Shown piece by piece: positions 5,216 through 21,291 of a stretch of DNA of 64,000 bases. Position 1 is the stretch's first letter. Every line of letters begins with the position of its first letter. A program made the translations under genes and the position numbers. This DNA comes from Phytohabitans rumicis (GTDB lineage Bacteria > Actinomycetota > Actinomycetes > Mycobacteriales > Micromonosporaceae). The notes below the pieces were generated by a model that saw only the letters and a program-made list of their open reading frames with translations, was not told the DNA's origin and did no database searches. Location of the stretch: positions 310,001 through 374,000 of the forward strand of contig NZ_BLPG01000001.1 of NCBI RefSeq assembly GCF_011764445.1. Direction: 5' to 3'.

Positions 5216-7618
5216 GTGGCTTTCGTCCCGCTCGCGCAGAGGCTCTCCGGAAACGCGATTCCGCTCGTGCTCGCCGGCCCGATCCTTCGGCACGTCGCCG
5301 CCGACCAGGTCACCGTCTTCGTCGCGTTGCGCGAGGCCCGCACCGTCACCCTGAAGGTGTACGCCGGCACCGGCGGCATTCGCACGACGGTGTTCGAGGG
5401 AAGCCGGGCGACCGTCCCGCTCGGGAGCAGCCTGCACGTCGTCGCCGTCACCGCCGCGAGCTCCCCGCCGGTGGCGAAGCTGGTCCCCGAGACCACCTAC
5501 TACTACGACTTGGACCTCGGCGGCGGGCTGACGCTCGCGTCCGCGGGGGTCCTCGCTCTGGCGGCGACCACGAACCCGCTCGCCCTTCCCGGCGCCGACC
5601 TGCCGAGCTTCTCGCTCGCGCCCGCCGCGCTCGACCAGGTACGGCTGGTGCACGCGAGCTGCCGCAAGCCGCACGGCGAGTCGATCGACGCGCTCACCGC
5701 GCTCGACGACATGATCGCCGAGGCCGGCACCGACGCGACCACGCCCGCGTTCGCGCGGGCCCGCCCGCACCAGCTCTTCCTGACCGGCGACCAGATCTAC
5801 GCCGACGACGTGGCCGACGTGCTGCTCTACCTGCTGGTGGACGCGGCCTCGGCGCTGCTGGGTTGGCAGGAGACGCTGCCCGGCTCGAACGCGGCACTGC
5901 TCACACCGGGTGCGCGGGCCTCGCTCACGCTCGCCGCCGGCCTGACCTCCGGGATCCCGACGGCCGGCTACCCCAAGAGCCACCTGATGCGCTTCGGGGA
6001 GTTCGCGGCGATGTATCTGTTCGCGTGGTCGCCGGTGCTGTGGCCGGCAGACCTGCCGACGGACGCGGACGTGGGCACGGCGACCAACCTGACGGCGCTC
6101 GGGCGCGAACGGGCGCGGATCGCCTCGTTCCGGACCACGTTGCCGGTGGTGCGCCGGGTCCTCGCCAACGTGCCGACCTACATGGTCTTCGACGACCACG
6201 AGATCACCGACGACTGGTACATGAACCGCCGTTGGGTGGGGCCGGAACAGGCGGCCCGGCGGCCCACGGGCGGGCTGCTCGACAAGCCGCTCGGCCGGCG
6301 CGTGGTGCAGAACGGGCTGCTGGCGTACGCGCTGTTCCAGGCGTGGGGAAGCACGCCCGAGCAGTTCGCCGCGACGGGCACCGCGGGTGAGCCGGGCCGG
6401 GCGCTGCTGGCGGCCGCCACCAGTTGGCGCGGGACGAGCGGCGACGCCCACGACACCGCGATCGCCACCCGCGTCGGCCTGCCGCCCGCCGCGCTCGCGG
6501 CCAACGCCACCGCGCTGACCAGGCCGGCGGGCGCGCTGCGCTGGCACTACCGGGTCGCGCCGGCCGGTGGACGCTACGAGGTGCTCGCCCTGGACTGCCG
6601 GACCGCCCGCGCGTACCCGGTCGGCGCGGACACCCGCGCGGCCGGGCTGCTCAGCACCGCCGCGATCGCCGAGCAGGTGACCAACCAGCCCGACGACCCG
6701 AACCTGCGCGTCACCATCGTGATCGCCCAGACGCCGGTGCTGGGACTGCCGTTCATCGAGGACAAGCAGCGGGCCGCGACCGGCGACGACGTCTGGGCGA
6801 ACGACGTGGAGGCGTGGAGCCTCAACGAGGACGCCTACCAGCGGCTGCTCGGCGCCCTGGCGATCCGGCGCCGGCGGGTCGTGGTGCTGTCCGGCGACGT
6901 CCACTACACGTTCGCCGCGCGCATGACGTACTGGGCGACGCGCCCGTACGGGCAGGCACAGCAGGCGGCGCCGATCGCCGCCGCCATCGTCCAGATGAAC
7001 TCCAGCGCGTTGAAGAACCAGACCTCCGACGCGTTGTTCGCCGACACCATCCGCCTGCACACCGGCGGATACAACCAGTTCTTCGTCCAGAACGTCGGCC
7101 GGCGGCTCGATCTGGTCTGCTGGGCGACGCCGCAGACCAGCAACCTCGAGGTCGGCGGCGGCGGACGGCCGATCAGCGCCAGCCGCTGGCCACCCGGCTG
7201 GAACGGCACGCCCGCGGTGGTCGACCTCGCCCGGATGCCCAGCGGCAGCCACGTCGCGGTCCAGCCGGAGTGGCGTTACCGCGTCGAGTACCTGCGCGGT
7301 GAGAAACCGGCTCCGGGCCAGGACACGCCGATGCCCACCCTGACGAACCTGCCCGCCGACGCGGCGGCTCGGACCACGGCGGTGGCCGGCGTGCACGCCG
7401 CGTACAACGCGAACCTCCGCAACGACGAGGGTCGCGACATCGTCGGGCGCAACAACGTCGGGGAGCTGCGGATCGAGCTGGACGGCGCCGGCGTGCCCCT
7501 GCGGGTGGTCCAGCGGAGCTGGTGGCGGTTCCGCGACGAGGTGACCCCGGAGGCGACGACCACGTTCACGGTCGGGCTCGACCCGGCGACCCCGACGGCG
7601 CCGGGGCCGCTGCCATGA
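5216..7618 (+). CDS. PhoD-like metallophosphatase (alkaline phosphatase D family)
   Basis: The 800-residue protein starts at a GTG preceded by a run of G (ribosome binding site). After an all-beta N-terminal domain (about 1-125, fibronectin-like position in PhoD enzymes) come the metallophosphatase motifs: GDQIYADD near residue 190, DDHEITDDW near 326 and LSGDVHYTF near 560, with RLVHASCRK before them. These supply the Asp, Asn/His and His metal ligands of PhoD-type phosphodiesterases or phosphatases. It lacks the twin-arginine signal peptide that classical PhoD carries, so it probably acts in the cytoplasm. It is the first gene of a run in which the next start overlaps this stop (ATGA at 7615-7618), indicating translational coupling to the DUF6603-like gene. 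Substrate is unknown. Confidence 0.85.
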   Translation: MAFVPLAQRLSGNAIPLVLAGPILRHVAADQVTVFVALREARTVTLKVYAGTGGIRTTVFEGSRATVPLGSSLHVVAVTAASSPPVAKLVPETTYYYDLDLGGGLTLASAGVLALAATTNPLALPGADLPSFSLAPAALDQVRLVHASCRKPHGESIDALTALDDMIAEAGTDATTPAFARARPHQLFLTGDQIYADDVADVLLYLLVDAASALLGWQETLPGSNAALLTPGARASLTLAAGLTSGIPTAGYPKSHLMRFGEFAAMYLFAWSPVLWPADLPTDADVGTATNLTALGRERARIASFRTTLPVVRRVLANVPTYMVFDDHEITDDWYMNRRWVGPEQAARRPTGGLLDKPLGRRVVQNGLLAYALFQAWGSTPEQFAATGTAGEPGRALLAAATSWRGTSGDAHDTAIATRVGLPPAALAANATALTRPAGALRWHYRVAPAGGRYEVLALDCRTARAYPVGADTRAAGLLSTAAIAEQVTNQPDDPNLRVTIVIAQTPVLGLPFIEDKQRAATGDDVWANDVEAWSLNEDAYQRLLGALAIRRRRVVVLSGDVHYTFAARMTYWATRPYGQAQQAAPIAAAIVQMNSSALKNQTSDALFADTIRLHTGGYNQFFVQNVGRRLDLVCWATPQTSNLEVGGGGRPISASRWPPGWNGTPAVVDLARMPSGSHVAVQPEWRYRVEYLRGEKPAPGQDTPMPTLTNLPADAAARTTAVAGVHAAYNANLRNDEGRDIVGRNNVGELRIELDGAGVPLRVVQRSWWRFRDEVTPEATTTFTVGLDPATPTAPGPLP

Positions 7619-10600
7619 GCGGCAACCTCGGCGAGGTGCTCGTCGCGGAGCTGCGGCTGCTGCTCGCGCCGCTGGCCGACGCCATCGACGACGACCTCGC
7701 CCTCGAACGGCTCTTCTACGACCTGGGTCTGGACCTCGGCGGGCTCACCGCGTTCCCCATCGGGGAGCTCGCCCAGCTCGGCCAGGCGGTCCAGACGGCG
7801 CTGGACGCCCTGGACCAGATCCCGCTGCCGCCCGACGGCCTGGACGACCTGGCGCCGGTGCTGGAGGCGACCGCCGCCATCCCCGCCGCGGTCGAGGCGA
7901 TCGGCGAGATCGCCGGCGCGTTCCCGGCCGGGATCGATCCGCCGCTGGACCCGGTCCAGCTGGTCACCGACGCGCTCAACCTGATCGTGCTGCGCTACCT
8001 CGAACGCCGCGCGCGGTTCGCGCTGCCGCTGCTGGCGCTGCTCGGCGTCGTGCGGGCGCGCACCGACGCCGAACTTGCCCCGTACACGGTCGACGCGGAC
8101 ACCGGCCGGGTGCTGCGCTTCCCGCAGGCCACCCCGATCGTCGACTTCGCTCAGCTCGGCGCGCTGCTCAGCGACCCCGTCGACGCGCTGAAGCGGTCGT
8201 ACCTCGGCGACCAGGAGGCGGCGGCGCTGCTGCTGGCCGGCGAGCTGTTCCCCCGCCTCGACGATCTCGTCGCGCCGTTCGGCGGTGGCGTGTACGTGCT
8301 GGATCCGGCCGACCTGGACGCCGGCACGCTCGGCCCGGCCGGCGCGACGCTCGCCGGCGCCACCGCGATGCTGCTGGTACCGATCGGGCCGGACACGCAA
8401 CCGGGCGAGACGCTCGTCGGCGCGATCATCACGCTGTCCCCCGCCGACGCCGGCGGTCTGGGGCTGGTCATCACCCCGGTCGGCGCCCTCACGCTCAGCG
8501 TCGAGGCCGGCGGGTGGACGGTGACCAGCGAGATCCAGGCCACCGGCGGCACGATCGCGTTCAGCTTCTCCGAGGTCGTCGTCAGCGGGGCCGGTGCGGA
8601 GATCGGCGGGTCGCTGACGCTGGAGCGCGGCGGGGCGGCCGGCCCGGCGCTGCGGCTCGGCGGCGAGGACGGCACCCGCCTGGAGATCGGCACCGTCCGG
8701 CTGGGCGCCCACCTGCTGCTCGCCGCCGACGCACCGCCCGACGCCGGGTTCCTCGCCGAGGTCGGCGGCGCGGCGCTGGCGATCGCGGCGGGCGACGGCG
8801 ACGGCTTCCTGGGCAAGATCCTCCCGCCCGGCGGGATCGTCTGCGAGTTCGAGCTGGGCGTGGGCTACTCGACCCGGCGCGGCCTGTACTTCAAGGGCTC
8901 CGCGCGCCTACAGGTCCAGATCCCCGTGCACGTGAGCTTCTTCGGGATCATCGACCTGGAGACGATCGACCTGATCGTCGCCCTGGCCGGCGCCGCCGGC
9001 GATGGGCAGGACGAGCAGTTCCGGATCACGCTGACCGCCGCGGTGACCGCCGGCGCGCACCTCGGTCCGCTGGACGCCAGCGTCGAGCAGATCGGCGTGG
9101 ACTTCCACGTCACCTTCCCCGAGGGCGGCGGCAACGCCGGCCCGGCGAACCTGGCGGTCGGGTTCCACCCGCCGATCGGCGCGGGATTGGTGCTGGACGC
9201 CGGTCCGGTCACCGGCGGCGGCTACATCCTCGCCGACCACGCCAACGGTCGGTACGCGGGGATCCTCCAGCTGGAGATCGCCGACACCCTCTCGGTCACC
9301 GCGATCGGGCTGGTCGCCACCCGCATGCCCGACGGCCGGGAAGGGTTCTCCCTGCTGGTCATCATCGCGGTGGAGTTCCCGCCGATCCAGCTCGGCTACG
9401 GGTTCACGCTCAACGGCGTCGGTGGCCTGCTCGGCGTGAACCGCTCGATGGCGGTCGAGCCGCTGCGCAACGCCGCCCGCACCCGGGCGCTGGACTCCGT
9501 GCTCTTCCCGCCCGACCCGGTCGCCAACGCCACCAAGGTCATCCGCGACCTGGAGGCGATGTTCCCGGTCACCGAGGGCCAGTTCCTCATCGGACTGATG
9601 GTGGCGATCGGCTGGGGCAGCCCGACCCTGATCAAGGTGGAGCTCGGCATCATCCTCGAGCTGCCCAACCCGATCCGGATCGCGCTGGTCGGACGGGCCA
9701 CCATCGTGCTGCCGACGGAGGACGCCGCCGTCGTCGAGCTGCGCATCGCCGTCATCGGCATCCTCGACTTCGGCGCCAGCGAGCTGAGCGTCGACGCCAG
9801 CCTGTACGACTCGCGGGTCGCCGCGTTCGCGATCACCGGCGACTTCGCGGTCCGGCTCAACTACGGCGCCTCCCCCGCGTTCGCCCTCTCCGCCGGCGGC
9901 TTCAACCCGCGCTTCACGCCCCCGCCCGGCTTCCCCGCGCTGGGGCGGGTCGCGATCAGCCTCGCCACCAGCGACAACCCGCGCCTGCGCGTCGAGGCGT
10001 ACATGGCGCTCACCCCCACCAGCGTGCAGATGGGCGCCCGCCTGGAGGTGTACGCCGAAGTGGACCTCGGCGCGCTCGGCCTGTGGTCGGTGCTCGCCTT
10101 CATCGGCTTCGACGCGCTGGTCTACCTCGCACCGAAGTTCAGCTTCATCGTCGACGTCGCCGGCGGTGCGTCGATCCGCCGCAACGGCAAGGTCCTGTTC
10201 GGCGCCGAGCTGTCGCTCACGCTGTCCGGCCCCGAGCCGTGGCACGCGGTCGGGTACGCCGAGTTCGAGTTCCTGTGGGCCAAGCGGCGGATCGGCTTCG
10301 ACGAGACCATCGGTCAGGAGCCGCCACCGCCGTTCATCCCCGCCGCCGACCCGGTCGTGGACCTGATCGCCGCGCTCGGCGACGCCGGCAACTGGTCGGC
10401 GCAGCTGCCCCGCGGCGGGCCCGGCAACGTCACCGTGCGCGACCCCGGCGACGTCACCGGCGAGCTACTGGTCCACCCGCTGGGCGCGCTCGACGTCGCC
10501 CAGAAGGTCGTGCCGCTGAACGTACGCATCGACCGCTACGCGGAGGCGCCGGTCGCCGAGCAGTCGCGCACGCTCGCCGTCGCGGTCACGGTCGCGGGGC

Positions 10601-11109
10601 GCCCGGCGAGCGGCGAGACCGTCCGCGACGCGTTCCCCGCCGGCCAGTTCTTCGCGCTGTCCGAGGACGCCAAGCTCACCGGCGAGCAGTTCCCCCAGCT
10701 GCCGAGCGGGCTGGCTGGCGTACGGCTGCCCGCCGGCACGGCCACGGTCCCCGCGGCCGTCGACGCGAGCGACCGGTACGAGACCGCGGTCGTCAACCCC
10801 ACCAACGGGCGTCTCACCCGCGGCCTGCCGGCCTATCTGTTGCCGGCCGCCACCCTCGACGCGCTCGTCGACGCCGGTGCCGCGGCGCGGGCACCGACCC
10901 GGGCGACCGGCGGTGCGGCGTTCGCCGGCGCCCCGCTGGGGATCGCGGTCGCCGAGCCCGCGTACCGGATCGTCACCGACGACGCGATGGCGCCCGCGGC
11001 CGGCACGGCCGGCTTCGCCTCCAGCTACGAGGCCGAGGCTGCCCGCCTCGCCACCGCCGCCGGGGCGGGGCTGCAGGTCGTCGGCTCCCACGAGGCGGCC
11101 ACGCCATGA
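7615..11109 (+). CDS. DUF6603-like large beta-rich protein of unknown function
   Basis: The 1164-residue protein has a helical, Leu-rich N-terminal part (about 1-190), then a long stretch of repeating beta-strand segments with alternating hydrophobic residues (about 220-920), and a different C-terminal domain (about 920-1164). Around residues 595-685 are GFTLNGVGGLLGVNRS, a following LFPPDP, and LIKVELGIILELPNP, which I recognise as typical of the DUF6603 family; this assignment is from memory of the pattern, not a search. No signal peptide or membrane helix is seen. The start overlaps the phosphatase stop and its stop overlaps the next start (ATGA at both ends). Function is not known. The regular amphipathic strands suggest a large beta-scaffold or lipid/ligand-binding surface, which is inference. 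Confidence 0.78.
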   Translation: MSGNLGEVLVAELRLLLAPLADAIDDDLALERLFYDLGLDLGGLTAFPIGELAQLGQAVQTALDALDQIPLPPDGLDDLAPVLEATAAIPAAVEAIGEIAGAFPAGIDPPLDPVQLVTDALNLIVLRYLERRARFALPLLALLGVVRARTDAELAPYTVDADTGRVLRFPQATPIVDFAQLGALLSDPVDALKRSYLGDQEAAALLLAGELFPRLDDLVAPFGGGVYVLDPADLDAGTLGPAGATLAGATAMLLVPIGPDTQPGETLVGAIITLSPADAGGLGLVITPVGALTLSVEAGGWTVTSEIQATGGTIAFSFSEVVVSGAGAEIGGSLTLERGGAAGPALRLGGEDGTRLEIGTVRLGAHLLLAADAPPDAGFLAEVGGAALAIAAGDGDGFLGKILPPGGIVCEFELGVGYSTRRGLYFKGSARLQVQIPVHVSFFGIIDLETIDLIVALAGAAGDGQDEQFRITLTAAVTAGAHLGPLDASVEQIGVDFHVTFPEGGGNAGPANLAVGFHPPIGAGLVLDAGPVTGGGYILADHANGRYAGILQLEIADTLSVTAIGLVATRMPDGREGFSLLVIIAVEFPPIQLGYGFTLNGVGGLLGVNRSMAVEPLRNAARTRALDSVLFPPDPVANATKVIRDLEAMFPVTEGQFLIGLMVAIGWGSPTLIKVELGIILELPNPIRIALVGRATIVLPTEDAAVVELRIAVIGILDFGASELSVDASLYDSRVAAFAITGDFAVRLNYGASPAFALSAGGFNPRFTPPPGFPALGRVAISLATSDNPRLRVEAYMALTPTSVQMGARLEVYAEVDLGALGLWSVLAFIGFDALVYLAPKFSFIVDVAGGASIRRNGKVLFGAELSLTLSGPEPWHAVGYAEFEFLWAKRRIGFDETIGQEPPPPFIPAADPVVDLIAALGDAGNWSAQLPRGGPGNVTVRDPGDVTGELLVHPLGALDVAQKVVPLNVRIDRYAEAPVAEQSRTLAVAVTVAGRPASGETVRDAFPAGQFFALSEDAKLTGEQFPQLPSGLAGVRLPAGTATVPAAVDASDRYETAVVNPTNGRLTRGLPAYLLPAATLDALVDAGAAARAPTRATGGAAFAGAPLGIAVAEPAYRIVTDDAMAPAAGTAGFASSYEAEAARLATAAGAGLQVVGSHEAATP

Positions 11110-13805
11110 GCCGCCGCTACCTGCCGTGGTGGCGCCAGGGCGCGGCGGCCCTGGTCACGGTCGCCGACGCGCCCGGCCTGCCCAGCCGCGCCGAGCTCGC
11201 GGTGACCGCGACCGTCAACGCCGGTCCGGCCGCGACCGTCACCGCCCGCCTGTACGGGCCGGGCGAGGTCGGTGGCATCGACGCGCGCCAGGTGATCCGG
11301 ACCGAGCCACCGCCCGGCACCCCCGACTTCGAGCCGAACTACTTTCCCGCCGTCGAGCTGGACGCGCCCGACCTGCCCTGGGCGTTCACCCCCGCGACGG
11401 CCAACGCCGCCGGGCAGCTGCGCCCCTGGCTGGTGCTCGTCGCGGTCCGCCGCGCCGCCGCCCGCCTGGACCTCGGCCGCCAGCCGCTGCCGGTGCTCGG
11501 CATCGACGACGCCGGCGCCGAACTGCCCGACCTCGCCCAGTCGTGGGCGTGGACGCATGTGCAGGTCACCGGGACGGGCACGCCGGCGGCCATCCTCACC
11601 GGCGACGAGCCCGCCCGTACCCTCGCCCGGCTGTTGTGCCCCCGCAAGCTCGACGGCGACACCGCGTACGTCGCCGCGCTCGTGCCGGCGTTCGCGCAGG
11701 GCGTCCAGGCGGGGCTCGGCCAGCCGGTCGACCCCGGTCCGGTCCTGCCCGCCTGGGACGCGGGCACGACCGCCGTCGAGTTGCCGGTCTACTTCTCCTG
11801 GGAGTTCGCGACCGGCCCGGTCGGCGACTTCGAGGAACTGGTCGCCCGCCTGCGCTTCCAGGGGCTCGACGCCGACGCGCTCGCCGGCCTGCGCGTCGAG
11901 GTCACCGGCCAGCCCGCCGGGATGCCCGACGCCGGGACGATCCGCGTCCCCGGTGCGCTCGGAAACGGCGGCGACACGCCGCCACCGGTCGACCCGGCGG
12001 TCCCGGCCCGCCTGCGGGACCTGCTTGAGATCCCCGGCACCGCGCCGGTCCATCCCGACCTGCCGGTCGCGCTGCCCGCCTACGCGCGCTGGCACGCCGG
12101 GGTACGCGCCGCGTCCGCGCTCGGCGGCACCGGCTGGTTCGCCCAGCTGAACCTGCACCCCGCGGCGCGCGCCGTCGCCGCCCTCGGCACCCGCATCGTC
12201 CAGGACCGGCAGGAGCAGCTCATGGCGGCCGCGTGGGCGCAGGCCGGCGAGATCGAACGCGCCAACCGGCTGCTGCGGCAGGGCCAGTTCGCGCGCGAGG
12301 CGAGCGCCGGGCTGCACCGCCGCCACCTCGCGCCCCTGCCCGACGCGACCGTGCTGGCGCTGGCCGGGCCGGCGCACACGAGGCTGCTCGCCGGCGGCGG
12401 GTTCACGGTCGCCGCGTGGGTCGCGGCGCGGCGGGTCCCGGCCGGGCTGTTCACCGTGGCCGCGCGCCGTATCGCGCGACCGCGCGGGCCGTTCGCCCGG
12501 CGCTGGCCGACCGGGATCGCCGCGCTCATCGCGCGCGCGAACGCCCGCGACGGCGGGCCCGGCGGCCCGCTCGTCGGCCGGGCTCCCGACCGGCCGCCGG
12601 GGATGGTCAGCACCGACCAGATCGGCGAACGTTTCGACCTGCCGCGCGTGTGCACCACCGGACCGGAATGGTGGCCGAAGCAGCCGGGGCCCCGGCGCGA
12701 GCCGCATCGCGGCCTGGCCGCCGTCACCCGCAAGGTGCTCGCCGAGCACGCCAAGGGGTTCGGGCCGTGCTCCGCGCCGCCACCGCCCGACCCGCTGCCG
12801 GTCGCCGACCTCGCCAAGGCGGTACGCACCGGGCTCGACCCGGAGCGCGCGGTCACCGCTCGCATCCGCGCCCGCCTCACCCTGCCCGCCGGCTGGTCGC
12901 CGCCCGACGCGCTCGAGCCGGTCCTGGCCGCGCCCGAGTTCCCCACCCCGATGTACCGCGCGGTCGCCGAGCTCGCCCCCGACCTGCTGCTGCCGGACGC
13001 CAACGCGGTGCCGGGCAACAGCGTCTGCCTGGTCGGCACCAACCCGTGGTTCGTCCAGGCGGTGATGGCCGGCCTCAACCACGAGATCGGCCGCGAGCTG
13101 CTGTGGCGCGGCTTCCCGACCGACCAGCGCGGCACCTGCTTCCGCCGCTTCTGGGACCGCGCCGGCGCCGTGCCCCGGCTGGCCGGCGACCGGCTCGACG
13201 ACATCCGGCCGATCCCCGACTGGCCGCTCACCCAGCCGCTGGGCGCGGCCGGGCTGCCCGACGGGAACGGGCCGGCCGCCTCCCAACTCGTCCTGCTGGT
13301 CCGGGGCGAGCTGCTGCGCCGGTATCCGCGTACCACCATCTACGCCGCCAAGGCGGCCTGGCGCTCCGGCGCCGGCGGCGACCCGACCCTGCCGGACGGC
13401 GCCCAGGAGGAGCACCCGCTGTTCGGTGGCTCGCTCCCACCCGACGTCACGTTCTTCGGGTTCGGGATCAGCCCGGCCGACGCCCGCGGCAGCGACATCG
13501 ACCCGGGCTGGTACATCGTGTTCCAGCAGCAGCCGACCGAGGCGCGCTTCGGGCTCGACGTCGGCGCGCCGTCCGCGCCGACCGGCACGTGGGGCGACCT
13601 GTCCTGGGCGGACGTCACGCTGTCCGGCTCCGGCCACGCGCTGCTCGGGGCGACCGACCCGATCACCGTCGACCCGGCCGCCGACGCCCGCGGGCTGCAC
13701 TTCACGACGGCGGCCACCAGCGCGCAGATCGCCGCCATCGTCGAGCAGCGCCCCTACCGCGTGGCGGTGCACGCCGCCGCGCTGTTGCCGGAGCCGCCGC
13801 CATGA
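11106..13805 (+). CDS. Conserved large protein of unknown function (third gene of the phosphatase/DUF6603 cluster)
   Basis: The 899-residue protein begins with YLPWWRQG and contains FEPNYFPAVELD (about residue 75), a mostly helical middle with many Arg/Ala, and GWYIVFQQQPTEARFGLD near residues 799-817. These blocks look like conserved signatures, but I cannot attach a described function to them. There is no signal peptide, membrane segment or recognisable catalytic motif. Translation is coupled on both sides (ATGA at 11106-11109 and 13802-13805). The composition and codon use are like its neighbours, so the whole run has been in this high-GC background for some time. Confidence 0.75.
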   Translation: MSRRYLPWWRQGAAALVTVADAPGLPSRAELAVTATVNAGPAATVTARLYGPGEVGGIDARQVIRTEPPPGTPDFEPNYFPAVELDAPDLPWAFTPATANAAGQLRPWLVLVAVRRAAARLDLGRQPLPVLGIDDAGAELPDLAQSWAWTHVQVTGTGTPAAILTGDEPARTLARLLCPRKLDGDTAYVAALVPAFAQGVQAGLGQPVDPGPVLPAWDAGTTAVELPVYFSWEFATGPVGDFEELVARLRFQGLDADALAGLRVEVTGQPAGMPDAGTIRVPGALGNGGDTPPPVDPAVPARLRDLLEIPGTAPVHPDLPVALPAYARWHAGVRAASALGGTGWFAQLNLHPAARAVAALGTRIVQDRQEQLMAAAWAQAGEIERANRLLRQGQFAREASAGLHRRHLAPLPDATVLALAGPAHTRLLAGGGFTVAAWVAARRVPAGLFTVAARRIARPRGPFARRWPTGIAALIARANARDGGPGGPLVGRAPDRPPGMVSTDQIGERFDLPRVCTTGPEWWPKQPGPRREPHRGLAAVTRKVLAEHAKGFGPCSAPPPPDPLPVADLAKAVRTGLDPERAVTARIRARLTLPAGWSPPDALEPVLAAPEFPTPMYRAVAELAPDLLLPDANAVPGNSVCLVGTNPWFVQAVMAGLNHEIGRELLWRGFPTDQRGTCFRRFWDRAGAVPRLAGDRLDDIRPIPDWPLTQPLGAAGLPDGNGPAASQLVLLVRGELLRRYPRTTIYAAKAAWRSGAGGDPTLPDGAQEEHPLFGGSLPPDVTFFGFGISPADARGSDIDPGWYIVFQQQPTEARFGLDVGAPSAPTGTWGDLSWADVTLSGSGHALLGATDPITVDPAADARGLHFTTAATSAQIAAIVEQRPYRVAVHAAALLPEPPP

Positions 13806-16800
13806 GCACGTACGCCGAGCACACCGCCCGCCGCGACCAGTCCCGCGCCGCCGCCCGCGAGGTCGAGCGGGTGGAGGAGGCGCTGCGCGCCGCGCGGGAC
13901 GAGCTGGCCCGCCTGCTTACCCAGGTGCCGCCCAACGCGCGCGCGATCCTGGCGGTGCAACGGCGCATCAGCCAGCTCACCATCCAGCTCGGCGCGGCAC
14001 GGGCGGCCGCCGGCGCCACCCGCCACGCGTACGAGGCCGGGCTGGACGCGCTGCCCGCGAGCCTGGATCCGGCGGTGCCGCTGCTGCTGCTTCCGGTCCG
14101 GCTGGAGACCCGCATCCGCGCGCGCACCGACGGGGCGGCCGGTGACGAGCTGGTGGTGCGGGTGTACCCGGACGACGTACACCTCGACGCCCACGACCCA
14201 CGGCTCACCGCCGCGGAGGTCCAGCTCGGGCGGCACTACTGGCGGCAGCGCTGGGCGGTCGAGGCCGGCGCGGCGCCGGACGCCGAGCAGCAGTCCCTGG
14301 CGGCCTGGCGCCAGCTCACCGGCCGCCTGGGCCCGGCCCGGGCCGCCTGGGTCGCGCGCGTGCTCACCCCGGCGAACCTGCCGCCCACCGCCGGCGCCGA
14401 GCCGGACCTGCCCGATCCGCCGGTCCGCCAGCCCGGCGACGAACGCGCCGTGCTGGCCGCCGCGCTGCCCGACCGCTGGGTGGTACGCGTCTGGCGTGGC
14501 GGCGCCCGGCTGGGTGAGGCGCGCGGCGAGCTGATCCCCCGGCCGCTGGTCGCCGGCCCACCCACCGACGAGGCCGGGAGCCCGCAGTCCTGGCTGACGG
14601 AGCTGCCGGCCGCGATCGACGCCGGCATGGCGGTCGTCGTCCGGCCCGACACCCCCACCGCCATCGACCGGGTCGACGTCACCGCGTTCGGGGTGCGTGC
14701 CACCGACACCGCCGCCGAGGCCGCCGGGCACCTGCGCGACCTGCTCGACGCGCACCAGTTCGCGCCGCGGCTCGGCGGTGTGGGGCTGGATCTGGTCCCG
14801 CAGGGCACACCCACCAACAACACTCCGGCGGCGCGCGCGCTCGCCCGTACGGACCCGTCCAGCGGTCGCAGCGCCGCCGCCTGGACCGGCCGGCCCGTGG
14901 CCGCGCGCGGCGACGGCTCCGACGCCGACCTGCTCGCCGCCGCGCTCGGCCTGCCGGACCGCGACCCGCGCCACCCCGGCGACTCCGACCGGTTCGTCCT
15001 CGGGCGCCTGGAGCACGCGGCCGGCGCCGACCAGCGGGACGTCGCCGCGATGGCGGCGGTCACCTGGCCGGCGAGTTGGGGCTACTTCCTGCGCCAGTTC
15101 CTTTCCGGCGTCGAGGGGATCGAGGCGGACGCGGACCTCGGCGGGTGGCGGCGGTTCGTGCTCGACACGGTCCGCGGCCGCGGGCCGCTGCCGGCGCTGC
15201 GCGTCGGCGATCAGCCGTACGGCGTCCTGCCGGTGCTGCCGAGCGACCGCTGGCGGCCCTGGCCGGACCAGCCCGAACTGTTCGCGGTGACGCTCAACCT
15301 CGCCGGTGGCATCGCGGAGGCGTGGCTGCTGGTCAGCTGGGACCTCGACGCGCGCGGGGCCTGGACCGGCGGCTGGGTCGGGCCCGCGCCGCTGCCCATC
15401 GACGCGGGCACCGACGGGCTCGCCGCGGGCGCCGGCGACCTCGACGGCGACGGGCACGCCGAACTGGTCGTGCTCACCACCCGCCGGGCCGGGGACGCGG
15501 TGTACCAGGTCGGCCAGCGGCTGGACGAGGACGGCGTACCGGGCCTGTGGACCGGCCCGCACCCGCTGCCGCCGCCGGCCCCGGGCCGGACCCTGATCGG
15601 CGGCGCCGCCGGCGTGGCGGTCGCGTCCCTGAAGGGCCGTCCCTCGCTCGTGACGGTCACCCAGGAGCAAGCCGTCCTGCCGTTCCCCGCGCCGAGCACG
15701 GTCGTACGCGTGGTCACCGACCTCGCCCCGACGGCGGCGGCGGGCGCTGGTCGGCCCCGGTCGAGGTGCCCGGCAGCGGTGCCGGCATGCGGCTGACCGG
15801 CGCCGCCGCCGGCGACCTCGGCGGCGGCACCGATCTGGTCCTGGCGTACGTGCGCGCCACCGCCGCCGGCCCGGAGCTGGCCTACCGGGTCGGCAACAGC
15901 CTGGACGACGGCGGCGGCGTACAGCGCTGGAACCCGCCGCAGGCCGTACCGGCCGCGCTCCACGGTGGACAGACGCTGCTCGGCGCCGGCGTCGCGCTCG
16001 CCGACCTCGACGGCGACGGGCGCGCCACCGACCTGGTCGTGCACACCGTCGTGGAGGACGGCGGGCAGCAACTGGCCCGCTACGCGGTCGGGCTCGCGCT
16101 GGACGCCGGCGGGACACCCACCGGCGGCTGGCACGGCCCGTACACGGTGGGGATGCCGTTCGCGGGCACCGGACCGGTCATCGCCGCCGGGATCGCCGCC
16201 GCCGCGGCCGGCCGCAGCCCCGCGGTCAGCACCGCGACCGCGACCGGCCTGGTCAACCTCGCCGAACGCGCGCGCGGCGCCTGGCGGGCCGGTGTCGTGG
16301 CGGTCCCGCGCGTCGGGCGCGCCGCCGACCCGACCGACGACCTGCTCGACCTGCTCGCCACGGACGCGGTGTCCGGACACGTACGCGTGCGCGGCCTGCT
16401 CGGTGCGCAGCTGCTCGCGAACATGTGGCTCGCCGCCGGCCGCACCCTCGACCTCACCGGGTACGCCCAGGACCTGTGGCAGGCGAGCCGGCCGTTGCCG
16501 GAGACCTGGGGGCTGCTCGACCCGGCCGCACCCGGCGCCGGCAACCCCGCCGGCAAGCCGCGCCTCGGCCGGGCCGCGTTCGAGGCGCAGGCGGTCACCT
16601 TCCCCTGGGCGCTGGCCGGCGACGGCACCTCGGCGCCCGACTCGGCCAGCGCCCTCGCGTTCGCCGCCAAGGCCGGCCCCGGCGACCTGCACGCGTGGAC
16701 GCTCCCGGCGGACGCTCCGCTGCTCAACCGGCTCGCGCGGCACGCCACCCTGCAGGCGTGGGCGGACGCCGCGCTCGCGGTGTGCCCGCCCGACGGCGGC

Positions 16801-19587
16801 CGCGCCGACCTGCCCCCGTGGACCGAGCCGGAGCTGGTCGACCTCGCCGACCTGCGCGATCCCGACCCGGTCACGCCCGCGTCGACGCCGACCGCGTGGC
16901 GCCACCTGGACCGCGCCCGCCTGCCCCGCAACGACCCGCAGTGGCCGGGTGAGCCGCCGGTCCAGAAGGTCCTGGGCGAGCTGCTGCGGCGGGCTGAGAA
17001 GGGCGACCAGCTGGCCGCGTACGGCGCCGGCGGGCGGCGCGTGGTCGAGCTCGCCGAACTGCGCGCGGCGCTGCGGTGGTTGGCGACCCGCCCGGCGGAC
17101 GTCCTGGCCCGGGCGCTCGGCGAGACCCTGGACGTGGCCAGCCACCGCCTCGACGCCTGGCTGACCGCGATCGCCACCGACCGCCTGCGCGCCATGCGGC
17201 GGGCCCGGCCGGCCGGCGTCCAGCTCGGCGGGTACGGCGCCGTCACCGACCTGCGGGCCCGCACCCGGCCGGCGTCCGAGGGGTACCTGCACGCGCCCTC
17301 GGTCGGCCAGGCCGCGACCGCGGCGGTGCTGCGCTCGGGGTACCTGACGCACGCCGGCGCGCCGCTCGGCCAGCGCCTCGCGCTCGACCTCACCTCGCGA
17401 CGGGTGCGCCTGGCCGTGGAACTGGCCGCCGGCGTCCACGGCGGCCACCAGCTCGGCGCGCTGCTCGGGTACCGGCTGGAACGGGCCCTGCACGAGCGGC
17501 CCGCGCTCGGGCTCGCCCGCTACCTGCCGGCGCTGCGCCAGCTCGCGCCGCTCGCCGCCGGCAAACGCACCCCGGTCCCCGCCGGCACCAGCGTGGACGC
17601 GATCGCCGCCCCGGTCGTCGTCGACGGGCTCGCGCTGCTGCGCGCCGCGTCCACGATCCCGTGGGGCGGCAACCCGCCGGCGCCGACGTCGCGCTGCCCG
17701 CCGCGGGCAGCGCCGACCAGGCACGCCTGCTGGAGGTGCTCGCCGAGCTGCGCGACGCCGTCGACGCGCTCGGCGACCTCGGCGTCGCCGAGGCCGTCCA
17801 CCAGGCCGTCCACGGCAACGCGACCGCCGCCGGCGGCGCGCTGGACGTCCTCGCCGGCGGGGAGGTGCCGCCCGCCGAGCCAGCGGTCATCCGCACCCCC
17901 ACCGCCGGCATCGGCGTCACCCACCGGCTGCTGGTCACGCTGCCCGACCCGGCCGACAAGAACGTCGCTGCGGCGGTCGCGCGGTGGGGCGGCGGCCAGC
18001 CGCGCGCCCAGGCGATGCCGCGGCTGGACGCGTGGGCCGCCATGCTGTTGCCCGACCCCGGCCAGGCCCGCTGGCGGGCGAGCTGGCACGAACCGGGCGG
18101 CGCCCAGCTCGCCGCGGAAACCTTCACGCTCGCCGCGCTCGGGCTGTGCGCGCTCGACCTGGTCCAGCTCGCCGCGCAGCCGGTCGGCAGCGACGCGGTG
18201 GACGCCCCGGCCGGCGCCCGCGGGGAGTTCGAGCGGCTGCTCGCGCTGCACGCCGCGGCCAGCGCGCCGGCCGCCGCGGCCGGCGGCGCCGTGCGCCTCG
18301 ACCTGGAACGCGACCCGGGCTGGCCGGCCGGCAGCTACACCATCGGCGAGGTGCTCGAGGTCGCCCGCGCCGCCCGGGAACTGCTCGCCCACGGCCGGCC
18401 CGCCGCGGCCGGCGACCTTGCCGGCCCCGCTGGCCTCCGCCCCGACGCCGGCCACCAGACCGGTGACCTGGCCGGCCCGGCCATCGCCGCCGCCGGCGCG
18501 CTCGACACCGCCATCGCCGCGCTGCGCTCCCCGTTCCAGCTGGACGACCCGGGCGCCGGCCACGCGGTCCTCGCCGGCGCGTACCCCCAGCTGCCGGCGG
18601 CGACGTTCGACACCGTGGACAACCTGCTCGACCTGCCCACCCACCTGGACCCGGCGCCCGGCGTGGCCGCCACCGGCCTGCCGGCCGCGGGCGACGCGGA
18701 CGCGGTCCGCGACGTGCTGCGCGGCCTTGCCGGGTTCGGGCTCGACGGCGCCGCCCCGGCCAGTCCCGCCGGCAGCGGCGTCGAGGACCTGGCGGGGCTC
18801 GCCGTGCAGGCCCGCCAGGTCGCCGCCGCGGCGACCGGCCGGGCGGCCGCGGCGCAGGAGGCCGCCGACCCGGCCAGCGCGCTGGCCGCGCTGTTCGGCC
18901 CCGCGTTCACCGTCGTGCCGGAGCTCACCGTGCCGGACCCGGACGCGCTCGCCGACGGGCTCGCCGCCCGCGCCGGCGACGCCCCGGAACCGGCCGTCGC
19001 CGACTGGCTCGAACAGGTCGCGTACGTGCGCGCCGGCGCCGCCCGCCTCGCCGACCTGCGCCTGCTCGCCGAGGCCACCGGGAGCGACGGCGCCGGCCTC
19101 GCGGTCGCCCAGTTGCCCACCCGTCCCGGCGACTGGTGGGCGGCGCTGCCGGACCCGCCCGGCCAGCGGCTGGGGCGGGCGCGATCGCGCTGGTCCTGGC
19201 GGGCCGCCCGGTCGATCCCGCCGCCCGGTTCGCCGGCCTGTACGTCGACGAGTGGGTCGAGGTCGTACCCGCCGCGACGCACGACACCGGGTGGTCTTCC
19301 ACGCCGACGCCCCGGGCGCCCGCGCACCGCAGGCGCTGCTGCTGGCGTGCGCCGCCGACCCCGCCCGCCGCTGGGACGACGAGGAGCTGGAACACGTGGT
19401 GCTCGACACCCTGGAGCTCGCCCGGCTGCGGGCCGTCGACGCCGGCGTCGGGCCCGCCGGCGCCCCGCCCACCGGCCACTGGTTCCCCGCCGTCCTGCTC
19501 GCCCGCAACACCGGCGGCGATCCGCACGGCGACACCGTCGCGACCACCCTGCCGCTGGCCCCGCCGCCCGTACCGCCCCACCCGTAG
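13802..19587 (+). CDS. Very large protein with coiled coil and FG-GAP-like segments, frameshifted four times as assembled
   Basis: Protein-like sequence runs from the ATG at 13802 to the TAG at 19587 but changes frame four times, each time by one missing base: near 15726-15729 (C run), 17679-17680 (GG), 19172-19175 (G run) and 19289-19291 (GGG). Restoring one base at each site gives 1930 codons exactly. The N-terminus is a coiled coil (about 5-80). LLLLPVRLETRIR (about 94) and VYPDDVHLDAHDP (about 121) follow, then LPALRVGDQPYGVLPV (about 463). Two segments, GDLDGDGHAELVVL (about 545) and ADLDGDGRATDLVV (about 735), resemble FG-GAP/VCBS Ca-binding repeats. The C-terminal half is Ala-rich and helical. 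Because all four shifts have one sign and lie at short G/C runs, I think the gene is intact in the organism. Function is unknown. Confidence 0.72.
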
Positions 19588-19596
19588 GGAGCCGCC

Positions 19597-21291
19597 ATGG
19601 CGTCGATCACCAGCTGGCAGCGGCTGGAACCGGTACCGCGCGACCCGGCGATGCCCGGCCTCGCCGGGCGCGTGGCCGATCCACTGTGGATGCTCGCCCG
19701 CCAGTGGCAGGTCGGGGAGCTGACCGGCGAGGACACCGGATCGCCGGTCCGGGTCGACCTCACCGTCGAGATCGCGCACCTGAGCCGCTACCGGCCAGGC
19801 GTACCGGACGGCATCGCCGGCAGCCCGCTCGACCGCACGCTGCCCCTGGAGGCGGTGGTCGAGGCCGAGCCGCCCGCACCCCCCGGCGACCAGCGCGCCG
19901 CCGCGGTCGCCGGCGCCCGGCTGCTCGCGCTGCTCGGCCCGCTCGCCGTACAGGTGCGCACCGGCCTGCTCGCGGCCCACGCCATCGACCCGCCACCCGC
20001 GTACGCCGATCCGGCGGTAGGCCGCCGCGCCGAGTTGCTGCGCCGCCAGGTACCCGACGGCCACAAGCTGCACGCCGCGCTCGCCGCCGCCCACAAGGCC
20101 GGCGACGTCACCACCGCGCTGCCCGGCCTGGACCGCCGCGACCAGGCCGCGCTCGCCGCCGCCGCGACCGCCGCGACCGGCTGGCTGGACTGGTACGCCA
20201 CCCGCGCCGTCCCCGCCGGAGGCACGCCACCGGCGTGGCGGCCGGACCGGCTGGAGTACGAGCTGTCCGTGGCCGCGGCGGGCGCCACGTCGGCCGACGA
20301 GCGCGTGCTCGTCGCCAACGACCACGACGGCGGCCGGCTGGACTGGTGGTCGTTCGAGCTGCACCAGGGTGCGACCCTCGGCGCCAACCGCGACGCCGCG
20401 CCGGACGAGGTGACCTCCTCGACGCTGCCGGCCGGCCTGGTCCTCACTGGACTGCCGGCCTCCCGCTTCTGGGAGTTCGAGGCGGGCGAGGTCAACCTCG
20501 ACGCCGTCTCGGCCGCGCCCGAGGACCTCGGCCGGCTGCTGCTCACCGAGTTCGCCGTCGCCTACGGCAACGACTTCTTCCTCGTACCGGTGGAAGTGGA
20601 CGCCGGCTCGGTGGCGTCCGTGCGCGGCCTCACCGTCCGCAACACCTTCGGCGAGACAATCCCGATCCCCACCGCCGCCGACGCGGACCGCACCGCCGGC
20701 CGCGCCCCGTTCCGCCTGTTCCAGCCGACCGTCGGCGCCGGCGGTACCCCGGGCGGCGCGGTGCCGCTGCTGATCCTCGTGCCCGGCGCGGCACCCGGCC
20801 TGGAAGGCGAGCCGGTGGAGGAGGTGCTGCTGGCCCGCGACGAGATGGCCAACGTCGCCTGGGCGGTCGAGCGACGCGTGCCCGGACCGGACGGCCGCGC
20901 GGCCGAACGCGCCGAGGCGCTGCACCGGGCCACCCCGCAGACACCGATCGCGGACGGTTCCCCGCACGCGCCCTCGCTGCACTACCAGCTCGCCACCGGC
21001 GTTCCGGCGAACTGGCTGCCGCTGCTCCCCCACCCGACCGCCGCGTCCGGCGCCGCCCGCCCGGTCCTGCGCCTGCGCGGGCCCACGCCCACCGGCCGGC
21101 TGCTGACCCCCGGCACCGAGATTCACGCCGAACGGCTCGGCCGGACCGGCGTGACCCTGCACCGGCGGGCAGAACGCGCCCGCGCGGGCGACGGCCGCAC
21201 CGTCGTCTGGATGAGCCGTCGCCGCGCCACCGGCCGCGGCGAAAGCTCCAGCGGGCTGCGCTTCGACCAACTGTCCGCGGACGCCGACTAG
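19597..21291 (+). CDS. Conserved protein of unknown function, last gene of the phosphatase/DUF6603 cluster
   Basis: The 564-residue protein starts at ATG 19597, 9 bp after the previous stop, with GGGAG as ribosome binding site. Near residue 26 it has ADPLWMLARQWQVGELTGED, a distinctive block. Further on are DWWSFELHQGATLG and ASRFWEFEAGEVNLD, and the C-terminal tail is Arg- and Ser-rich. No signal peptide, membrane helix or catalytic signature is visible. Its position as the close-packed final gene supports a role with the four genes before it. The identity of the family is unknown to me; the Trp-rich N-terminal block should make homologues easy to find. Confidence 0.75.
   Translation: MASITSWQRLEPVPRDPAMPGLAGRVADPLWMLARQWQVGELTGEDTGSPVRVDLTVEIAHLSRYRPGVPDGIAGSPLDRTLPLEAVVEAEPPAPPGDQRAAAVAGARLLALLGPLAVQVRTGLLAAHAIDPPPAYADPAVGRRAELLRRQVPDGHKLHAALAAAHKAGDVTTALPGLDRRDQAALAAAATAATGWLDWYATRAVPAGGTPPAWRPDRLEYELSVAAAGATSADERVLVANDHDGGRLDWWSFELHQGATLGANRDAAPDEVTSSTLPAGLVLTGLPASRFWEFEAGEVNLDAVSAAPEDLGRLLLTEFAVAYGNDFFLVPVEVDAGSVASVRGLTVRNTFGETIPIPTAADADRTAGRAPFRLFQPTVGAGGTPGGAVPLLILVPGAAPGLEGEPVEEVLLARDEMANVAWAVERRVPGPDGRAAERAEALHRATPQTPIADGSPHAPSLHYQLATGVPANWLPLLPHPTAASGAARPVLRLRGPTPTGRLLTPGTEIHAERLGRTGVTLHRRAERARAGDGRTVVWMSRRRATGRGESSSGLRFDQLSADAD

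What the first reader, a model, noticed from the sequence alone, without database searches (positions are those of the whole stretch)
5216..21291. Five-gene cluster of very large cytoplasmic proteins around a PhoD-like phosphatase and a DUF6603-like protein
Five consecutive genes, mostly with 4-bp stop/start overlaps, encode 800, 1164, 899, about 1929 and 564 residues. Only the first has a recognised enzyme fold. None shows a signal peptide or membrane helix. The proteins carry strong, distinctive sequence blocks (for example FEPNYFPAVELD, LPALRVGDQPYGVLPV, ADPLWMLARQWQVGE), which suggests long conservation as a set. The layout fits a multi-subunit assembly with one nucleolytic or phosphatase activity. 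I know of no described function.
Basis: partly seen in the sequence, partly recalled or inferred. Interest (0 to 1): 0.82.

Follow-up and report, generated by a model that had tools for sequence, protein, structure and literature searches.

The report
Conserved protein set with swappable enzyme
Four very large proteins of unknown function travel together through bacteria and archaea, and the gene in front of them is often an enzyme that differs from genome to genome, as if the four form a carrier or platform that can be fitted with different enzymes; here the enzyme is a PhoD-type phosphodiesterase.

Summary
The five genes are real, and three of four joins are ATGA overlaps. The "1929-residue" fourth gene is broken in this assembly by four frame changes; relatives have one ORF. 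The set is conserved: g3-g4-g5 in order in 58 of 61 loci with room, DUF6603 in 41 of 41 g5 genomes tested, across bacterial phyla, archaea and plasmids. PhoD is not a fixed member: of 34 same-strand genes just upstream of a DUF6603 gene, 11 are PhoD, 4 PLD, others M64 peptidase, tyrosinase, ferritin-like, peptidoglycan-binding and more; 11 of 45 DUF6603 genes have no such neighbour. I read genes 2-5 as a chassis with an exchangeable enzyme slot. The DUF6603 protein is predicted as a long amphipathic beta-meander, loosely like ApoB and porin sheets; the g5 model gave no significant PDB match. Natural fusions argue for physical association. Delivery or display of the enzyme is inferred, not shown. 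No paper in the searched library names DUF6603.

The parts
5216..7618 (+). g1: PhoD-type metallophosphoesterase, 800 aa; occupant of the variable enzyme slot
   Evidence: Pfam PF09423 E 3.3e-11; HASC, GDQIY, DDHE, SGDVH blocks in the translation; homologues directly upstream of DUF6603 in a subset of genomes
7615..11109 (+). g2: DUF6603 protein, 1164 aa; helical N-terminus, then a long amphipathic beta-meander
   Evidence: Pfam PF20248 E 4e-123; AF2 model and fold comparison; strand alternation
11106..13805 (+). g3: chassis protein, 899 aa, no match in the family libraries scanned; part of it related to type II cluster proteins
   Evidence: no Pfam, NCBIfam or PDB-sequence match; 37-row alignment; order conserved
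13802..19587 (+). g4: chassis protein with FG-GAP-like stretch; one gene in relatives, broken here by four frame changes near 15.75, 17.68, 19.17 and 19.29 kb
   Evidence: frame segmentation; pieces match one ORF in relatives
19597..21291 (+). g5: chassis protein, 564 aa, used as marker (WMLARQWQ)
   Evidence: 50-row alignment; AF2 pLDDT 81, no significant PDB match

Best explanation
Genes 2-5 encode a mobile four-protein chassis (DUF6603, g3, g4, g5) that assembles into one large complex and carries, docks or presents an exchangeable enzyme encoded next to it, usually just upstream of DUF6603. In this genome the enzyme is a PhoD-type phosphodiesterase, the family that contains Streptomyces chromofuscus phospholipase D. 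The DUF6603 protein has a helical N-terminal part and a long amphipathic beta-meander whose greasy face probably meets lipid or membrane; g3, g4 (with FG-GAP-like repeats) and g5 would form the body. Mechanism proposed: the complex is assembled inside the cell, released or displayed at the surface, and brings an envelope-attacking or envelope-modifying enzyme to a target membrane or wall. SHOWN by computation: conservation as a set, occurrence across phyla and on plasmids, different enzymes in one slot, natural fusions, amphipathic sheet prediction. INFERRED: physical complex, binding of the enzyme, lipid contact, extracellular action, target.
Against: No export signal seen, and beyond close relatives no further gene family is conserved beside the cluster. 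11 of 45 DUF6603 genes have no same-strand neighbour within 400 nt, so an adjacent enzyme is not obligatory. Tyrosinase and ferritin-like occupants are not obvious envelope attackers. Three occupant domains (M23, Exo_endo_phos, trypsin-like) lie below Pfam cut-offs, and the Exo_endo_phos stands before a type II cluster, not this chassis. The count of 10 occupant changes on the tree means little, since 10 different states force at least 9. The DUF6603 model has pTM 0.47, Foldseek TM-scores for the model are 0.15 or less, VIA rmsd is 11-13 A, only 13 of 24 core strands alternate significantly on their own, and soluble beta-sandwiches also alternate. PhoD-PhoD pairs share the DUF6603 N-terminus only slightly more than PhoD-other pairs (0.194 versus 0.164). 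No experiment was seen.
Confidence: 0.45

Rival explanations
1. A lipid-handling complex acting on the producer's own envelope: the DUF6603 sheet binds or moves phospholipid and the enzyme (PhoD/PLD type) hydrolyses it, for phosphate scavenging or lipid remodelling.
For: The commonest occupants are PhoD (11 of 34) and PLD (4 of 34), families with phospholipid-cutting members; sheet loosely resembles ApoB.
Against: Peptidase, tyrosinase, peptidoglycan-binding and ferritin-like occupants; presence in only about 2-3% of the sampled genomes of the phylum does not suit a housekeeping role.
Confidence: 0.2
2. An accessory or effector-loading module of extracellular contractile injection systems.
For: Sheath matches in 23 of 42 cluster genomes, 22 over the cut-off; in the phylum sample 5 of 9 DUF6603 genomes versus 26 of 287 others, p 0.0009, and 3 of 7 g5 genomes versus 28 of 289, p 0.03; in Rhizocola (L074) sheath, tube, spike and baseplate genes lie about 6 kb downstream, after a lantibiotic dehydratase.
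Against: 19 of 42 genomes have no sheath match; of six genomes with a match on the cluster's own contig only one has it near, and in the other 17 it lies on other contigs, distance unknown. Single-sequence phmmer found no such gene in the other fetched loci or the window. Large genomes may carry both by chance.
Confidence: 0.12
3. Genes 2-5 are a conserved complex, but the upstream enzymes are ordinary neighbours without functional link.
For: 11 of 45 DUF6603 genes have no same-strand upstream neighbour within 400 nt, and 5 of 34 neighbours look by eye like housekeeping genes.
Against: Mostly overlapping or short gaps; PhoD recurs in this slot in Actinomycetota, Chloroflexota, Pseudomonadota, Bacteroidota and a haloarchaeal plasmid, and beside the set in a Myxococcota contig.
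Confidence: 0.13
4. An intracellular defence system.
For: Patchy distribution and plasmid carriage.
Against: No useful PADLOC match (best E 0.9); occupants include wall- and lipid-acting enzymes.
Confidence: 0.06

Closest known systems
Pfam DUF6603 (PF20248)
   Same: g2 is a clear member (412 bits)
   Different: The family is a name only; no paper in the searched library mentions it, and the name says nothing of fixed neighbours or an enzyme slot
PhoD family (PF09423; B. subtilis PhoD, S. chromofuscus PLD)
   Same: g1 matches and keeps Cys, DDHE and GDVH blocks
   Different: No export signal seen; encoded in an operon with the chassis; Asp-Asp where, by my recalled alignment, Asn-Asn binds calcium
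ABC/Tc toxin complexes
   Same: Works alike in the proposed sense: large multi-protein carrier with exchangeable payload; FG-GAP-like repeats in one component (recalled for Tc)
   Different: No Tc component family matched in the window's chassis proteins; payload is a separate gene
Extracellular contractile injection systems
   Same: Patchy spread and varied associated enzymes (recalled)
   Different: No sheath, tube or baseplate gene in the cluster; linked in one examined locus only
Lipid-binding amphipathic beta-sheets (ApoB) and outer-membrane beta-barrels
   Same: Predicted sheet topology of DUF6603
   Different: No signal peptide; occurs in single-membrane bacteria and archaea; rmsd 11-13 A, low TM-scores

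Membership tests
PhoD family (PF09423) | Profile match above curated cut-off | tested here: met
   43.3 bits versus 27
PhoD family (PF09423) | Metal-ligand blocks (Cys, Asp, Asp-Asp-His-Glu, Gly-Asp-Val-His) | tested here: met
   Read in the translation; ligand list from passages of PMC4223295; mapping is by eye, and the Asn pair appears as Asp-Asp
PhoD family (PF09423) | Extracytoplasmic, exported by signal peptide | tested here: not met
   No signal-like N-terminus by inspection and hydropathy
DUF6603 (PF20248) | Profile match above curated cut-off | tested here: met
   412.1 bits versus 27
ABC/Tc toxin complex | TcA, SpvB/TcB and RHS-type components (recalled definition) | tested here: not met
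   Pfam, NCBIfam and PHROGs scans of g1-g5 (g4 in pieces; the whole L001 g4 in PHROGs only) gave none; only sub-threshold FG-GAP
Extracellular contractile injection system | Sheath, tube and baseplate genes in the cluster | tested here: not met
   None by phmmer in the window or fetched loci except L074; queries were single sequences
Outer-membrane beta-barrel | Closed transmembrane barrel with export signal | tested here: inconclusive
Bridge-like lipid transfer / AsmA proteins | Repeating groove lined with hydrophobic residues | tested here: inconclusive
   Amphipathic sheet seen; not among the listed PDB rows, which excludes nothing
Known anti-phage defence systems | PADLOC model match | tested here: not met
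   Best E 0.9

The most novel reading that the evidence does not exclude
A previously undescribed class of mobile payload carrier, neither contractile nor Tc-like, shared by bacteria and archaea: a four-protein particle whose DUF6603 subunit uses a giant amphipathic beta-sheet to engage or open membranes and whose enzyme is exchanged between lineages, so that the same carrier serves lipid-, wall- or protein-degrading payloads.
Probability: 0.33. Interest if true: 0.92.

Novelty: categorically new. Interest (0 to 1): 0.76.

Why it matters
Three of the four chassis proteins match no curated family above cut-off in the libraries scanned, and the g5 model found no significant relative among solved structures, yet the set spans bacteria and archaea and sits on plasmids. 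If it carries enzymes out of the cell or to its surface it would be a new kind of delivery or display machine with natural exchange of its enzyme. The question is directly testable: does the enzyme co-purify with the four proteins, and where does the complex go?

Tried and rejected
Gene 4 as one 1929-aa ORF: rejected by frame segmentation. Programmed frameshifting: four changes in one direction, with one continuous gene in relatives, make it unlikely. Missing bases in the assembly are favoured: the second cluster of this genome shows same-direction frame changes, and G/C runs of six or more are rare (1 in 64 kb, 0.16 per 10 kb; other loci over 68% GC 0 to 6.0 per 10 kb, a few of them 0 in 10-22 kb). 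No run of five or more lay within 60 nt of the four switch points as segmented, so this is suggestive only; decay is not excluded.

Phage origin: an IMG/VR scan with the g5 alignment gave 28 pattern matches, none confirmed; one unverified 'phage' record holds the end of g2 and g3-g5 and may be a bacterial contig. PDB sequence searches: g5 and g3 profiles nothing up to E 1; g2 18 weak matches (best E 0.017), nearly all to helical proteins over its N-terminus; g1 nothing at 0.01. PHROGs: only weak unknown-function matches. Rhizobium genes of 357 and 731 aa between DUF6603 and g4 looked like cargo but are two parts of g3. Absence of AsmA/VPS13 proteins from the fold list proves nothing. Paper searches listed no paper whose title or abstract describes this system; apart from PMC4223295 only listings were seen. 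One search used a meaningless pattern only to learn the window's place.
Full report
WHAT IS THERE. The window is G000:C1:310001-374000 of a 10.7-Mb, three-contig high-GC genome. Five + strand genes start at 5216, 7615, 11106, 13802 and 19597. The first three joins are 4-bp ATGA overlaps; the last is a 9-nt gap. Upstream lies a divergent 988-aa gene that looks by eye like a SARP/BTAD regulator; the next genes downstream look unrelated by eye. Gene 1 is PhoD (PF09423), gene 2 DUF6603 (PF20248); genes 3 and 5 match no Pfam or NCBIfam family up to E 1, and gene 4 in pieces only sub-threshold ones, FG-GAP among them.

GENE 4 IS BROKEN HERE. Third-position GC and a Viterbi frame segmentation show the coding frame stepping +1, +0, +2, +1, +0 across 13.8-19.6 kb. 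In relatives the gene is continuous: 62 calls over 1000 aa, 1376-2573 aa, median 1678. The second cluster in this genome (C2:396.7-412.3 kb) shows same-direction steps as well, and long G/C runs are rare, though none of five or more lies within 60 nt of the segmented switch points. Missing bases in the assembly are the likeliest cause; decay is not excluded.

CONSERVED AS A SET. A scan of genome contigs with g5 confirmed 91 relatives, of which the best 80 were kept. By record title they span Actinomycetota, Bacillota, Chloroflexota, Nitrospirota, Pseudomonadota, Bacteroidota, Acidobacteriota, Planctomycetota, Myxococcota and archaea. g4 was called directly upstream of g5 in 69 of 78 loci. In seven of the nine exceptions the g4a/g4b profiles missed a short upstream gene, but tblastn with the later g4 pieces finds g4 there; L063 has another order with g4 present by tblastn, and L079 is fragmented. 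Of 61 loci with room, 58 have g3, g4, g5 in order; L063, L075 and L077 do not. DUF6603 occurs in 41 of 41 genomes tested (41 of the 80 loci were given) and in 0 of 14 control genomes. In 296 genomes of the phylum sample, own genome included, 9 have DUF6603, 7 have g5, 6 have both (Fisher p 7e-10); in one of the six (G304) the g5 match is a short piece on another contig. The quick g5 tree mixes phyla, for example Trebonia with Dyella at SH-aLRT 100, which suggests transfer without proving it. Thirteen plasmid records carry g5. In 7 of the 8 annotated plasmid regions that I opened DUF6603 stands upstream; the eighth, S. anthocyanicus, has none within the 14 kb shown. An unannotated haloarchaeal plasmid has g2-g5 by profile.

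THE FIRST SLOT IS VARIABLE. Forty further stretches were fetched, most of them upstream of DUF6603; one 1.5-kb piece was not gene-called. By rule (same strand, within 400 nt upstream of a DUF6603 gene, in all fetched loci up to L143) 46 rows arose: 34 with a neighbour, 12 without. One of the 12 is the second half of a split gene, so 11 of 45 DUF6603 genes lack one. The 34: PhoD 11; PLD-like 4; M64 peptidase 1; tyrosinase 1; M23-like with a peptidoglycan-binding domain 1 (M23 just below its cut-off); Exo_endo_phos 1 and trypsin-like 1 (both below cut-offs); ferritin-like 1; DUF2515 1; unknown 7 (four scanned, three not); probably unrelated, judged by eye and not scanned, 5. Four of the 34 (L102, L103, L129 and the first of L118) stand before DUF6603 genes that are not followed by the g3-g5 chassis; without them 30 remain, with PhoD 11 and PLD 4 unchanged and Exo_endo_phos gone. 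The window itself, not in the count, is PhoD. A haloarchaeal plasmid also has PhoD there. Right after g5, GH10 (L001), pentapeptide and WD40 proteins (plasmids) were seen; of 14 rows of close downstream genes listed I scanned four (in L001, L039, L042, L068), three without a match. On the g5 tree PhoD versus other occupants needs at least 6 changes in 19 rows; all occupants need 10, but ten different states force nine anyway, and no shuffle was run. Hence genes 2-5 are the conserved unit and gene 1 is an exchangeable passenger.

DO THE CHASSIS PROTEINS TOUCH? Natural fusions suggest so. A 1918-aa protein of this same genome (C1, about 1.24 Mb, L102) joins a DUF6603 region, a g3-like region and a part like the 275-aa component of another cluster. 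In G292 the g4 and g5 regions lie in one open frame with no stop between. A second cluster type (L103, C1:895-912 kb) has a 3365-aa DUF6603 protein followed by a g3-like 528-aa protein and three further proteins.

HOW IT MAY WORK. Shown: conservation, different occupants, fusions, predicted sheet. Inferred: g2-g5 assemble; the enzyme docks on them; the DUF6603 sheet meets lipid; the complex acts at or beyond the cell surface. Supporting the last point: occupants with peptidoglycan-binding or PLD domains, and lamin-tail and BGTF surface domains annotated in haloarchaeal g5 and g4. Against: no export signal seen, no conserved secretion neighbour noticed. The PhoD family includes B. subtilis PhoD and S. 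chromofuscus phospholipase D (PMC4223295, abstract and passages seen), so the window's enzyme may cut phospholipid or teichoic acid.

RELATION TO CONTRACTILE SYSTEMS. Sheath matches occur in 23 of 42 cluster genomes, 22 over the cut-off, and in 31 of 296 genomes of the phylum sample; DUF6603 genomes are enriched there (5 of 9 versus 26 of 287, p 0.0009; g5 3 of 7 versus 28 of 289, p 0.03). Of six genomes with a sheath match on the cluster's contig, only Rhizocola has it near. Association is possible; dependence is unlikely, since 19 of 42 have no match.

KNOWN OR NEW. No paper of the library holds DUF6603 or PF20248; other searches listed no description. Subscription journals and preprints were not searchable, so prior work may exist.

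On recounting I lowered the weight of the tree count, marked M23 as below its cut-off, and named the four rows outside the chassis.

Noticed in passing
G000:C2:396700-412300 (L100, L101): A second full PhoD-DUF6603-g3-g4-g5 cluster in the same genome, also with same-direction frame changes in PhoD and DUF6603.
   Followed up: partly
G000:C1:895000-912500 (L103): A second type of DUF6603 cluster: 178 aa, 3365-aa DUF6603, g3-like 528 aa, 275, 1204 and 351 aa; a relative in L129 has an Exo_endo_phos-like enzyme in front.
   Followed up: partly
L102 (G000:C1, about 1.24 Mb): A 1918-aa protein fusing DUF6603, g3-like and 275-aa-type parts.
   Followed up: yes
L074/L178 (Rhizocola): Lantibiotic dehydratase and a contractile injection cluster directly downstream of the chassis genes.
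   Followed up: partly
L006, L010 and 11 other Nitrospira-type loci: An extra conserved protein of about 269 aa between g3 and g4 (13 loci).
   Followed up: no
L108 (Nitrospira defluvii): Two DUF6603 genes in a row, each with its own enzyme in front (PLD, then M64 peptidase).
   Followed up: partly
L169 (MT835531.1): A record filed as an unverified bacteriophage carries the end of g2 and g3-g5; it may be a bacterial contig.
   Followed up: partly
window 1-64000: Only one G/C run of six or more in 64 kb at 73% GC, which hints at shortened homopolymers in the assembly.
   Followed up: partly
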